A model generated the notes under the pieces. The model made no database searches. It had not been told where the DNA came from and was given only the letters and a program-made list of their open reading frames with translations. A DNA stretch of 64,000 nucleotides from Weissella thailandensis. GTDB lineage: Bacteria > Bacillota > Bacilli > Lactobacillales > Lactobacillaceae. The stretch's first letter is position 1; every line of letters starts with the position of its first letter. The stretch lies in contig NZ_BJEC01000003.1 in NCBI RefSeq assembly GCF_005405465.1, positions 1 through 64,000 of the forward strand. The letters are read 5' to 3'. The position numbers were made by a program, and so were the translations under genes. Shown here one piece after another: positions 22,200 through 59,099 of this stretch.

Positions 22200-22289
22200 A
22201 AGATCTCCTCAATGCACAAAAACATAATTATGAAGTGCGTAATGCCTTACTTAATTATAAATAAAAAAGATAATAATAGTAATAAGGGG

Positions 22290-22391
22290 TGTGGAAATTG
22301 TGGATAACCATAATCTATACCATTACACCACGGATTGGTCTATGTATAGAAACCTGTGGATAACTTTTGGATAGTTAGTGAATTATTCACA
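22290..22391. promoter_or_regulatory. DnaA boxes between dnaA and dnaN
   Basis: Two perfect TGTGGATAA boxes (22299-22307, 22355-22363) and TTATTCACA at 22383-22391, plus a weaker TGTGGAAAT at 22290. They form the dnaA-downstream part of a bipartite origin as known in Bacillus and lactic acid bacteria, and probably contribute to control of dnaN. Confidence 0.8.
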
Positions 22392-22401
22392 ACGTCATTT
22401 C

Positions 22402-23819: not shown

Positions 23820-24410
23820 AACCTCCTTTAAAATTTTTATATATTTTGTGGGTTTTCCACAGGACGTTTGCTGAATTTATTTTCATAAATAGCACAATTC
23901 GACAAATTTCATTTTATCAGTATGTGGATAAGTTTTCCACAAGGAATATGCTTGTTATATTAATGATTTACACCACTTTAGGTAACAATTCGGTAGATTC
24001 ACAGGCTGTGGAAATCTAAATATGAGTTATCAACTGGATGTGAAACAAATTTTTAGGCCAATTCTGGAAATTTTGGATAACTTAGGGGAAAATAGAGAAA
24101 TATACAAGCAGTTGTTAACAACCAAAGCTTGTCATAATAGTTTATAAATTAGTTATGCACATATCCACAGGGTAATCAGTGGTTGGTTTTCCCGATATGT
24201 GGAACATGTGGATAAACTGTGGATTATGGGGAAAACTCATGTAACGCTCCGTTATGTTAATTATTTTTATTAACATAACTCTCTGTTAGATTTTGGAAAA
24301 CTTTTGGAAAAAGATAATTATATAAAATATAAAATTTTTTTAAAGGCAGTTGGTGATCATGCTATTTTTTCAGTTTAAAAGTACTTAAGAAAGCATAAAA
24401 TGCTTAATAT
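23820..24410. other. Chromosomal replication origin (oriC) between dnaA and rpmH
   Basis: This non-coding stretch holds perfect DnaA boxes at 23923-23931 and 24207-24215 (TGTGGATAA), near-perfect ones at 23853-23861 and 23933-23941 (TTTTCCACA), 24153-24161 (TTATGCACA), 24161-24169 (ATATCCACA) and 24218-24226 (TGTGGATTA), and several weaker matches. An AT-rich run at 24241-24350 is a good unwinding element. Gene order (dnaA on one side, rpmH-rnpA-yidC on the other) and the change of main coding strand support origin function. Confidence 0.92.
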
Positions 24411-24412
24411 TC

Positions 24413-24441
24413 TTGATTTGGTTAATTTGTGATGGTACAAT
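24413..24441 (+). promoter_or_regulatory. Promoter of rpmH
   Basis: TTGATT (24413-24418), a 17-bp spacer, and TACAAT (24436-24441) with an extended TGG just before it. A hairpin of GGTTTGGCCTTG with its near-complement follows in the leader (about 24455-24485). Confidence 0.7.
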
Positions 24442-56542: not shown

Positions 56543-57022
56543 CTATTTATGATATGGCGTATGTGCATTAATCATAAAGCTACGATAAATCTGTTCAGTT
56601 AATACAAGACGCATTAATTGATGAGGTAATGTGAAGCGCCCAAAACTGATTTGTGTATTGGCTCGTTTTAGTACTTCGGGTGATAATCCTAAGGAACTAC
56701 CGATCACAAAAGTTAAATCTGACTTGCCTGTGGTCGTTAAATGATCAATTTCAGCAGCCATTTCTTCACTAGAACGTTCGGTTCCTTTAATGGCTAATGC
56801 AAAAACGTATTCTTTATCTTTAATTTTATTAAGGATACGTTCACCTTCCTTAGACATTACTTGATCCATTTGTGCTTGAGATAATTGTTCGGGTGCTTTT
56901 TCATCAGGCACTTCAATAATTTCTACCTTAGCGAATTTATGCAAACGTTTTGTGTATTCTGCAATACCATCTTTCAGGTATTTTTCCTTTAATTTGCCAA
57001 CGCCGATGATTTTTATATTCAT
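56543..57022 (-). CDS. rlmH: 23S rRNA pseudouridine-1915 N3-methyltransferase
   Basis: The 159-residue SPOUT methyltransferase uses S-adenosylmethionine to methylate pseudouridine 1915 of 23S rRNA on assembled ribosomes. Start [20 protein letters not shown] and the knot region [20 protein letters not shown] with [20 protein letters not shown] are unmistakable. AAAGGTAG precedes the ATG. In Firmicutes this gene (orfX) is typically near the origin, as here, 33 kb from dnaA; a DnaA-box cluster starts just upstream. Confidence 0.97.
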
Positions 57023-57076
57023 TGTTCGTCTACCTTTCTAAAATAGTTCGTTATTTTTATCAATTGCTTTGTAAGA

Positions 57077-57691
57077 TGTGGATAAATACTAAAATATATC
57101 GTAAAACACATGTTATCCACAAGTTAACCACAACCTTAAAAAAGCCCGCGAGCACTATTATATCAAAGTATACGGCGGTCTTTGTGAAGATTTTAAGTCA
57201 CTTATCCACTGTTGTGAATACTGGTTGTGCATAAGTTATAAAAAGTGATGACAACGGCATTTGTAAACGCTAAATTAGTGAAATTATACTCATTATAAAT
57301 AAGTACAAAAAAAGTTATACACAATACAAGAAGTTGATGTTTAATTATTTTACAAAATATATGAGGAAAAAGCTAAGTTAACATTCGATATTTTCACCCT
57401 TATTAGGAATAATAAACGACATATCTATAGATAAAACGTTTTAAAAGCGTATAATTTTTAAAAAACAACTGAAAGTTAGGTAGAAATCCATTATTTTTGC
57501 AAGGTTTAACCTAATTTTAAGATAAAATCCCGATTTAACGGACTTTTGCTTATTACAATTTGTTTTAACAGGTTATCCACATTTGCATATGTATTGATTT
57601 AATGGGGTTTCTCAACAATAAATCAGGAGTTATTAACAAGTTATCCACAGAAAGCGGTGGAATACGTGGACTTTTCCCCTAGTTGTCCACA
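57077..57691. other. Second cluster of DnaA boxes between rlmH and ktrB
   Basis: This 730-bp AT-rich gap has four perfect boxes: TGTGGATAA at 57077-57085 and TTATCCACA at 57113-57121, 57573-57581 and 57641-57649. It also has TGTGCATAA (57226-57234), TTATACACA (57315-57323), and one-mismatch boxes at 57124, 57202, 57213 and 57683. That is as dense as the origin beside dnaA. Between about 57340 and 57540 lies a long AT-rich box-free run. No believable gene is present. Confidence 0.8.
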
Positions 57692-57755
57692 AAAATCTGT
57701 GAAAAACTTTTGCGCTGCTCCTGTATAATATAAAGAAGTTGGGAGATACTTAATT

Positions 57756-59099
57756 ATGAAAAAATTATTTAACAAATTAACGCCGCCTCAGGTATTAACG
57801 TTTGGATTTTTGGCGATTATATTTGTTGGGGCTTTTATATTAAGGTTGCCTATTTCACAGCAAACTGGTGTACATGTTAATTTCCTTGATGCATTGTTTA
57901 CTTCCGTGTCCGCTACGGCAATTACGGGACTGACTGTTGTGAATACGGCAGCAACGTGGTCAACCTTTGGCCAAGTTATCTTATTGATTATGATCGAGAT
58001 TGGTGCGCTTGGGTTTATGACGTTTGCGGTCTTGCTATTTGCGATAACCGGGCAACGATTAGACTTAAGAGCGCGGTTGATGGCGCAGCAAGCGCTAAAT
58101 TTACGTAATTTAGCGGATGTTAAAAGTGTGTTATCGTACGTCTTCTCGCTATCAGCCATTATTCAGCTTGTTGGTGCGGTACTGATGCTACCTGACTTTG
58201 TACCCCGTTTTGGAATGACGAAAGGTATTTATCTGAGTGTTGCCTCGTCTATTTCGGCATTTGGAAATGCGGGATTTACATTCTTTGATCAACCAGTGAC
58301 GTTTTTACAAAATGATCCGTATGTGTTGATTATTTGGATGTTATTAATTACTGCAGGTTCATTAGGTTTCCTAGTTTGGCGAGATTTATTGCTCTTTTAT
58401 AAGCAGCGACGCGTTAGTCTACATACTAAGGTAGCTTTGCATGTATCTAGTTGGCTAATTGGGTTGAGTTTTGTCATGTTCTTATTCACGGAGAAATTCT
58501 TGGCGCCTTTAGCAGATACCTCATCGATTGGACACCGTATTATTGATAGTCTGTTTTTGGCCGTTGCACCTCGTACGGCGGGACTAGATGTTGTGCCGTT
58601 GACCAACGTTTCAACGGCCGGTATTATGATAATTACCCTATTAATGTTCGTCGGTGGAACGCCAGGCTCGACTTCTGGTGGTATTAAAACAACCACATTG
58701 GGTATTTTATGGATGCAAACATTGGCCGCATTACGTGGTCAAGAACAGGTAAACTTTGGTGGTCGGCGTTTTAGCCCAAAAGTTGTTATTAAAGCAATGA
58801 TGTTAGTCGTTATTTCGATTGTTTTCGTCGCAATGGCTTCGCTTTTGCTGACAATCACTGAGACGATTCCAAAAGGTCAAGGTATGGAATATGTTGTCTT
58901 TGAAGTTATTTCTGCTTTCTCAACAACAGGATTGTCGTTGGGATTGACCCCTCACTTGACGAGTTTCGGTAAATTTGTCATTATGATCGTCATGTTTATC
59001 GGTCGTGTTGGTCTGTATACCGTGATGTTTTCAGTCATGAATATCCGTGATAAGCCAAAAAGTTATCAATATCCGACTGAGGAAGTAATTATTGGCTAA
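57756..59099 (+). CDS. ktrB: Potassium uptake channel subunit KtrB (TrkH family)
   Basis: The 447-residue membrane protein has the four-fold M1-P-M2 layout of the TrkH/KtrB family. Selectivity-filter glycines are visible in SATAITGLTVVN, SISAFGNAGFTFF, VAPRTAGLDVVP and ISAFSTTGLSLG. It takes up potassium with sodium and needs the KtrA ring, encoded at 38257. GGGAGATAC precedes the ATG; TATAAT at 57724-57729 is a plausible -10 box, directly behind the DnaA-box cluster. Confidence 0.95.
   Translation: MKKLFNKLTPPQVLTFGFLAIIFVGAFILRLPISQQTGVHVNFLDALFTSVSATAITGLTVVNTAATWSTFGQVILLIMIEIGALGFMTFAVLLFAITGQRLDLRARLMAQQALNLRNLADVKSVLSYVFSLSAIIQLVGAVLMLPDFVPRFGMTKGIYLSVASSISAFGNAGFTFFDQPVTFLQNDPYVLIIWMLLITAGSLGFLVWRDLLLFYKQRRVSLHTKVALHVSSWLIGLSFVMFLFTEKFLAPLADTSSIGHRIIDSLFLAVAPRTAGLDVVPLTNVSTAGIMIITLLMFVGGTPGSTSGGIKTTTLGILWMQTLAALRGQEQVNFGGRRFSPKVVIKAMMLVVISIVFVAMASLLLTITETIPKGQGMEYVVFEVISAFSTTGLSLGLTPHLTSFGKFVIMIVMFIGRVGLYTVMFSVMNIRDKPKSYQYPTEEVIIG

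What the first reader, a model, noticed from the sequence alone, without database searches (positions are those of the whole stretch)
57077..57691. A second origin-like DnaA-box cluster 33 kb from dnaA
The gap between rlmH and ktrB holds four perfect DnaA boxes and about six near matches in some 600 bp, comparable to the classic oriC at 23.8-24.4 kb, plus an AT-rich 200-bp run. Boxes of this quality are not expected by chance in one intergenic gap. It could be a DnaA-titration or reactivation site (datA/DARS-like), an accessory or ancestral origin, or a control point for rlmH and ktrB. Function is inference.
Basis: partly seen in the sequence, partly recalled or inferred. Interest (0 to 1): 0.78.

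Follow-up and report, generated by a model that had tools for sequence, protein, structure and literature searches.

The report
Conserved DnaA-binding cluster near the origin
A gap about 33 kb from the replication origin carries a dense group of likely binding sites for the replication starter protein DnaA; it does not look like a second origin but like a long-conserved side site, matching one known in Bacillus subtilis, that probably soaks up DnaA and may also adjust neighbouring genes.

Summary
The cluster is real. The 733-bp rlmH–ktrB gap holds four perfect and five one-mismatch DnaA boxes, against 26 perfect boxes in the whole 1.97-Mb genome. In the window genus, box bases are 80% identical and the rest of the gap 48%. 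Of 242 rlmH loci read, 199 have at least 3 boxes in the 1 kb upstream and 4 in the 1 kb downstream.

It does not look like an origin: the main GC-skew switch is at dnaA, and the only DnaA-trio array beside a box in the window lies in the dnaA–dnaN spacer.

The orthologous B. subtilis site, upstream of yydA (= rlmH), is one of eight prominent DnaA-bound regions in vitro (PMC4447404).

In 11 of 12 genomes followed up after rlmH and htrA had separated, the cluster stayed behind htrA, beside varied genes; in the window genus it stayed with rlmH. Three other box-poor genomes showed no cluster nearby. This favours a maintained oriC-proximal site over a simple rlmH switch.

Best reading: a new member of the known extra-oriC DnaA-box clusters; titration plus transcriptional effect is inferred.

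The parts
57023..57755 (.). rlmH-ktrB intergenic gap that holds the DnaA-box cluster
   Evidence: ORF ends; sequence; box bases 0.80 identical versus 0.48 elsewhere in the gap among 26 other genus loci
57077..57085 (-). DnaA box, perfect
   Evidence: kept (<=1 mismatch) in 19 of 26 genus loci, perfect in 18
57113..57121 (+). DnaA box, perfect; 11 bp start-to-start from the weak box at 57124
   Evidence: kept in 21 of 26, perfect in 12
57124..57132 (+). DnaA box, one mismatch; poorly conserved
   Evidence: kept in 3 of 26
57157..57162 (-). conserved TATAAT (TGATATAAT), likely -10 of the rlmH promoter
   Evidence: among the best conserved 9-mers of the gap; role inferred; not among the 8 two-hexamer hits
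57202..57210 (+). DnaA box, one mismatch; half of an inverted pair 24 bp apart
   Evidence: kept in 25 of 26; +/- pairs 23-24 bp apart occur 27 times over 27 genus loci
57226..57234 (-). DnaA box, one mismatch; other half of the inverted pair
   Evidence: kept in 25 of 26
57273..57522 (.). AT-rich middle stretch, weakly conserved
   Evidence: AT 0.72-0.81 in 100-bp windows; identity 0.32-0.6 in 20-bp steps; no trio array
57315..57323 (+). DnaA box, one mismatch
   Evidence: kept in 12 of 26
57573..57581 (+). DnaA box, perfect
   Evidence: kept in 21 of 26, perfect in 15
57641..57649 (+). DnaA box, perfect; best conserved box of the gap
   Evidence: kept in 25 of 26, perfect in 13; column identity 0.94
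57683..57691 (+). DnaA box, one mismatch, just upstream of the likely ktrB promoter
   Evidence: kept in 16 of 26
57724..57729 (+). conserved TATAAT, likely -10 of the ktrB promoter
   Evidence: conserved 9-mer; sequence; role inferred; not among the hits
56543..57022 (-). rlmH, 23S rRNA pseudouridine-1915 methyltransferase (homologue of B. subtilis YydA)
   Evidence: NCBIfam equivalog above cut-off; PDB YydA 1to0 E 2e-58, SAV0024 protein 1vh0 E 1.4e-48
57756..59099 (+). ktrB/trkH-type potassium uptake membrane protein
   Evidence: NCBIfam TIGR00933 294 bits, below its curated cut-off of 331
22200..22401 (-). dnaA-dnaN spacer of oriC, for comparison: boxes plus trio array TTATTACTATTATTA
23896..24420 (.). 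box cluster upstream of dnaA (other part of oriC), for comparison

Best explanation
It is an extra-oriC DnaA-box cluster near the origin, the counterpart of the DnaA-bound site upstream of yydA (rlmH) in B. subtilis. DnaA probably binds the spaced boxes cooperatively. Because the site lies about 33 kb from oriC it doubles almost at once after initiation and would then hold DnaA away from oriC, damping re-initiation. DnaA bound there probably also modulates the flanking rlmH and ktrB promoters. Shown here: the boxes, their conservation, their position, the absence of a trio array beside a box, and the survival of the cluster when neighbouring genes change. Inferred: DnaA binding in this organism, titration, and transcriptional control.
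For: Density: 4 of the genome's 26 perfect boxes lie in 573 bp. Conservation: 27 of 27 analysed genus loci, 60 of 66 other family loci, 42 of 69 other class loci and 70 of 80 named loci have >=3 boxes in the 1 kb upstream of rlmH; downstream control 0, 0, 0 and 4. Footprint: 0.80 versus 0.48 identity, reached by none of 734 shifts of the box mask. Position: rlmH lies <=100 kb from dnaA in 46 of 53 complete or nearly closed genomes, median 41 kb. Independence from rlmH: in 5 of 5 genomes of genus g12 and 6 of 7 named genomes followed up (Terribacillus, Thalassobacillus, Oceanobacillus, Ornithinibacillus, two Halobacillus) the cluster sits 3' of htrA, away from rlmH and next to varied genes. Biochemistry at the orthologous site: seven sites, Kd 0.16 uM for ATP-DnaA in B. 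subtilis (PMC4447404 passages); deleting all six extra-oriC clusters gives early initiation (PMC5295017 and PMC13220808 passages).
Against: No binding or replication data exist here for this organism. In B. [quoted passage not shown] The cluster is dispensable in some lineages: 21 of 69 class loci have no box upstream of rlmH, and 13 of these 21 still have htrA beside rlmH, so there it is gone rather than moved. Three box-poor family genomes searched over 16-20 kb (G021, G036, G040) showed no cluster nearby, and Paraliobacillus (G335) has none at either htrA or at rlmH. Conserved -10-like hexamers beside the boxes would equally suit plain promoter control.
Confidence: 0.65

Rival explanations
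1. The boxes are mainly an operator: DnaA directly represses or activates rlmH (and ktrB), with no meaningful role in titration.
For: Boxes lie on both sides of the conserved -10-like hexamer of rlmH and upstream of that of ktrB. The review PMC8203912 lists yyzF-yydABCD among eight gene sets directly regulated by DnaA in B. subtilis (passage). In 199 of 242 loci the cluster lies upstream of rlmH.
Against: The cluster sits 3' of htrA without rlmH in 11 of 12 genomes followed up, next to unlike genes (an IscA-like protein, an Hsp20-like protein, an aldolase-like enzyme, an alkyltransferase-like protein and others; names are my reading of translations). In the two g12 genomes whose rlmH upstream kilobase was read (G011, G049), rlmH has no boxes (L094, L123). 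New operator roles at those places are not excluded.
Confidence: 0.25
2. It is a second, accessory or ancestral replication origin.
For: Box density equals or exceeds that of oriC (9 versus 8 boxes per 650 bp), and an AT-rich stretch is present. Three 2-kb bins between 50 and 58 kb have slightly negative GC skew (-0.017 to -0.030).
Against: The lasting GC-skew change of sign, and the minimum of cumulative skew, are at 20-24 kb, not at 57 kb. No trio array beside a box was found in the gap or in 27 genus loci; one locus (L034) has a four-unit array without a box, while the oriC spacer has five units beside a perfect box. The AT-rich part is poorly conserved. PMC11019786 argues that the B. subtilis clusters inhibit rather than fire (passage).
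Confidence: 0.03
3. A DnaA reactivation site (DARS-like) or a DnaA-ATP hydrolysis site (datA-like), acting on the nucleotide state of DnaA.
For: Dense boxes with short tandem spacings (10-13 bp) and a recurrent inverted pair.
Against: The known E. coli sites depend on IHF or Fis and a defined box geometry (recalled); PMC13220808 says B. subtilis lacks IHF (passage); IHF genes were not searched in this genome. Geometry differs between lineages: 11-bp tandem pairs commonest in the genus, 12 bp in the family, 13 and 21 bp in the named Bacillales.
Confidence: 0.06
4. Chance or an AT-rich composition effect.
For: The gap is AT-rich and the box is AT-leaning.
Against: Shuffles of the same 1 kb give 0.27 boxes on average against 9, and conservation is concentrated on the boxes.
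Confidence: 0.01

Closest known systems
B. subtilis DnaA-bound region upstream of yydA (rlmH), among the DnaA-box clusters outside oriC
   Same: Same flanking gene (YydA is the RlmH homologue), several boxes upstream of rlmH in the B. subtilis group (L166-L168); bound by DnaA in vitro (PMC4447404 passages).
   Different: Here a divergent ktrB lies on the other side; the boxes form two groups with a weakly conserved middle; box spacing differs (11 bp commonest in the genus, 13 and 21 bp in Bacillales). Binding is unproven here. That this region is one of Okumura's six clusters is my reading; that paper is not held.
E. coli datA
   Same: Dense non-coding DnaA-box site outside oriC held to lower available active DnaA.
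   Different: IHF dependence and box geometry recalled, not tested; no evidence of homology.
E. coli DARS1/DARS2
   Same: Non-coding DnaA-box sites outside oriC whose relative distance from oriC is conserved (abstract of PMC5010248 in the listing).
   Different: Defined box core and reactivation activity not tested; position here is oriC-proximal.
Bipartite oriC of B. subtilis type
   Same: Box clusters of similar density, AT-rich stretch.
   Different: No trio array beside a box, no lasting skew switch.

Membership tests
Extra-oriC DnaA-box cluster (B. subtilis type, yydA/rlmH site) | Several consensus DnaA boxes in one intergenic region outside oriC | tested here: met
Extra-oriC DnaA-box cluster (B. 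subtilis type, yydA/rlmH site) | Located upstream of the rlmH/yydA orthologue | tested here: met
Extra-oriC DnaA-box cluster (B. subtilis type, yydA/rlmH site) | Boxes conserved beyond their surroundings | tested here: met
   (0.80 versus 0.48 identity)
Extra-oriC DnaA-box cluster (B. subtilis type, yydA/rlmH site) | DnaA binds the region | not testable with these tools
   reported for B. subtilis only (PMC4447404 passages)
Extra-oriC DnaA-box cluster (B. subtilis type, yydA/rlmH site) | Its removal contributes to early initiation | not testable with these tools
   B. subtilis six-cluster deletion only, as told by reviews
Replication origin (oriC) | Lasting GC-skew sign change at the site | tested here: not met
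   change at 20-24 kb; bins at 50-58 kb are near zero, not a switch
Replication origin (oriC) | DnaA-trio array beside a DnaA box | tested here: not met
   0 of 27 genus loci; present in the dnaA-dnaN spacer
Replication origin (oriC) | AT-rich unwinding element, conserved | tested here: inconclusive
   AT-rich but poorly conserved; unwinding itself not tested
datA | IHF-dependent DnaA-ATP hydrolysis | not tested
   needs biochemistry; IHF genes not searched
DARS | Promotes ADP release from DnaA through a fixed box core | not tested
   needs biochemistry; core geometry not compared

The most novel reading that the evidence does not exclude
Much of the class keeps one oriC-proximal DnaA sink as an independent chromosomal element, ancestrally between htrA and rlmH. 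Selection holds the element itself near the origin while neighbouring genes come and go, so it acts as a replication-timing element rather than as a gene operator.
Probability: 0.4. Interest if true: 0.72.

Novelty: new member of a known kind. Interest (0 to 1): 0.5.

Why it matters
What the DnaA-box clusters outside oriC do in Gram-positive bacteria is unsettled: removing all six in B. subtilis advances initiation, yet the same review denies them a significant role (PMC5295017). A cluster present in 199 of 242 loci and kept in three lineages when its neighbouring genes were exchanged is a natural test object. In 8 of 9 family genomes with complete box listings it is the only site outside the dnaA region with three perfect boxes in 600 bp (my reading), so a single deletion could give an answer that needed six in B. 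subtilis.

Tried and rejected
Second origin: disfavoured by skew, trio scan and lack of conservation of the AT-rich part. Chance: rejected. Simple rlmH operator as the whole story: weakened by the htrA-side clusters but not excluded.

Followed up without a cluster: G021, G036 and G040, family genomes with 2, 0 and 2 boxes at rlmH, had no cluster within the 16-20 kb read; Paraliobacillus G335 had none at either htrA. Of ten named loci with no box, seven were followed up and three not (two with clostridial titles, one Brevibacillus, L239, L245, L242); of 21 class loci with no box none was followed up, and 13 of them have htrA beside rlmH.

Extent beyond the class: of 27 phylum-level loci read, L288 is same-class; 0 of the other 26 has >=3 boxes. 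Against this, one of three named records with clostridial titles (L243, a metagenome bin) has one perfect and two one-mismatch boxes and is counted among the 70 of 80. Other box consensus sequences were not tested there.

oriC distance as the cause of loss: rlmH is far from dnaA in G106 (1.1 Mb), G263 (405 kb) and G085 (316 kb). A congener of G106 (G048, L122) has no boxes and G263 has two, but the rlmH upstream regions of G106 and G085 were not read, and many oriC-proximal rlmH genes also lack boxes, so I claim no correlation. Promoter and terminator scan: 8 promoter-like sites against 5.6 +/- 2.8 in shuffles, no terminator; not informative.

Literature: searches for DnaA with rlmH (9 papers listed), with yydA (and 3 papers), DnaA box with orfX (none), DnaA titration with Lactobacillus (none), DnaA-box cluster with Bacillus subtilis (17 papers), six origin terms (28 papers), and three or more of DnaA boxes/htrA/rlmH/walR/comC/conserved (134 papers; none of the 25 listed holds 'DnaA boxes') turned up no report of this conservation in titles, abstract starts or the passages I read; I did not read the listed papers through. 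Okumura 2012 is not held, so an earlier statement there cannot be excluded. PMC12826053 passages already describe htrA-rlmH adjacency.

Rows dropped or unread: L054-L056 (rlmH of G157 in pieces) left out of all counts; G009 left out of the distance table because its rlmH place was not listed. Read: 66 of 145 family genomes outside the genus, 69 of 153 other class genomes with a match, 26 of 97 genomes outside the class with a match. The box listings were cut by the tool; only fully listed genomes were used. Stretches L247-L256, L261 and L262 were fetched and not analysed.

Full report
Observation. The rlmH-ktrB gap (57023-57755) contains four perfect TTATCCACA boxes and five with one mismatch, from 57077 to 57691. 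Outside this gap and the dnaA region no 650-bp stretch of the window holds more than two. The genome (1,974,613 bases, 43 contigs) has 26 perfect boxes; 4 lie here, 5 around dnaA/dnaN, and 17 elsewhere, none of those closer than 1.1 kb to another. Twenty-six boxes at random would put four within 573 bp somewhere with a chance of about 5e-7.

Not an origin, as far as sequence tells. GC skew changes sign for good at 20-24 kb, at dnaA; three 2-kb bins between 50 and 58 kb dip slightly below zero (-0.017 to -0.030) and then return to positive. The dnaA-dnaN spacer has a perfect box, a GC-richer stretch, then TTATTACTATTATTA, a trio array of the kind used for unwinding (motif recalled; sequence). 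Of three arrays of four or more units in the window it is the only one with a box (<=2 mismatches) within 40 nt upstream. The rlmH gap has no array; among 27 genus loci one (L034) has a four-unit array, without a box beside it. The AT-rich middle of the gap is among its least conserved parts.

Conservation. In the window genus all 27 analysed loci have at least three boxes (<=1 mismatch) within 1 kb upstream of rlmH, median 10; outside the genus but in the family 60 of 66; in other families of the class 42 of 69 (21 have none); among 80 named loci, 77 of them Bacillales by title, 70 (10 have none). The 1 kb downstream of rlmH reaches three boxes in 0, 0, 0 and 4 loci. In an alignment of 27 genus gaps, box bases are 0.80 identical to the window and the others 0.48; none of 734 shifts of the box mask does as well. 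The boxes at 57641, 57226 and 57202 are kept in 25 of 26 other loci, the weak box at 57124 in only 3. Besides boxes, the best conserved words include TATAAT hexamers where promoters of rlmH (57157-57162, minus) and ktrB (57724-57729, plus) would lie (promoter role inferred; the two-hexamer scan did not list them). Of 26 loci read outside the class none has three boxes, but a metagenome bin titled Clostridium (L243) has three.

Known counterpart. The window RlmH matches B. subtilis YydA (1to0) at E 2e-58. In B. tequilensis, whose RlmH is 99% identical to YydA, boxes lie at -354, -320, -140, -58 and -47 from rlmH. PMC4447404 (passages) lists the region upstream of yydA as number 8 of its DnaA-bound regions, with 7 sites and a Kd of 0.16 uM for ATP-DnaA. 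PMC8203912 (passage) names yyzF-yydABCD among eight gene sets directly regulated by DnaA. PMC5295017 (passages) and PMC13220808 (passages) report that removing all six clusters outside oriC causes early initiation; [quoted passage not shown] subtilis. PMC11019786 (passages) reads the clusters as inhibitory rather than as alternative origins.

Which neighbour does the cluster follow? Of 242 loci, htrA lies upstream of rlmH on the same strand in 147 and divergent in 9; a divergent ktrB in 25, all of the window genus; something else in 61. The only htrA found in the window's own genome lies on another contig (C4), with three scattered one-mismatch boxes in 4.2 kb and no cluster. So in this genus the cluster stayed with rlmH. 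The reverse happened elsewhere. In genus g12, G049 has three perfect and five one-mismatch boxes just 3' of htrA, 18 kb from rlmH, whose own upstream kilobase has none. The other four g12 genomes (G011, G080, G107, G132) also have the cluster 3' of htrA: rlmH lies 18 kb away in G132, over 200 kb away on the same contig in G080, and on another contig in G011 and G107. Seven named genomes without boxes at rlmH (Terribacillus, Thalassobacillus, Paraliobacillus, Halobacillus x2, Oceanobacillus, Ornithinibacillus) were followed up: six have 6 to 10 boxes right behind the walJ-linked htrA. Their second htrA copies have no cluster, only 1 to 5 one-mismatch boxes in about 4 kb. Paraliobacillus has no cluster at either copy. 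The gene on the far side of these clusters varies between genomes. That argues for selection on the cluster rather than on control of one gene, though operator roles may be regained each time. Against a general rule: G021, G036 and G040 showed no cluster within the 16-20 kb read, and 13 of 21 class loci without boxes still have htrA beside rlmH, so the cluster has been lost outright in some lineages.

Position. rlmH lies within 100 kb of dnaA in 46 of 53 genomes and within 200 kb in 50; the median is 41 kb; some genome sizes used are rounded. In nine genomes whose perfect boxes were fully listed (G000, G011, G013, G049, G054, G077, G080, G107, G132), every one has this cluster, at rlmH or at htrA, with at least three perfect boxes within 600 bp, and only G080 has another such group outside the dnaA region (my reading).

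Architecture. In rlmH orientation most boxes point against the gene (203 of 274 in the genus). Tandem pairs 11 bp apart and inverted pairs 23-24 bp apart recur in the genus; 12 bp is the commonest tandem spacing in the family sample (39 loci) and 13 and 21 bp in the named set. Short regular spacings suit cooperative DnaA binding (inference).

Mechanism. I think it most likely that DnaA binds here, that the site doubles soon after initiation because it is near oriC, and that it then competes with oriC for DnaA; a side effect on rlmH and ktrB transcription is likely. Binding, competition and transcriptional effect are inferred from B. subtilis.

Verdict. A real, well-conserved member of a known kind of site, not a new origin. 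What is of interest is its persistence through gene rearrangement in three lineages, which makes the role of such clusters testable.

Noticed in passing
G080:C4:359588-360120: Another group of three perfect DnaA boxes within 533 bp, away from dnaA and from the htrA-side cluster; gene context not read.
   Followed up: no
G263:C1:2395246-2395439 and 2526432-2527019: Groups of four and five perfect boxes far from rlmH in a genome of another family whose rlmH is about 400 kb from dnaA and has only two boxes.
   Followed up: no
G106 (rlmH at C1:1139021-1139485): rlmH lies almost opposite dnaA on the chromosome; a congener (G048) has no boxes at rlmH.
   Followed up: partly
L054-L056 (G157:C12:204960-205559): rlmH appears broken into pieces in one genus genome that is only 66% complete; may be an assembly fault.
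   Followed up: no
L002 and L052: The rlmH matches of G137 and G160 are each reported with one stop codon inside; L002 shows an otherwise full-length match.
   Followed up: no
window 22271-22307: oriC module in the dnaA-dnaN spacer: perfect box, GC-richer stretch and five-unit trio array.
   Followed up: yes
L243 (metagenome bin titled uncultured Clostridium): Three boxes upstream of rlmH in a record whose title lies outside the Bacillales; the bin's true affiliation was not checked.
   Followed up: no
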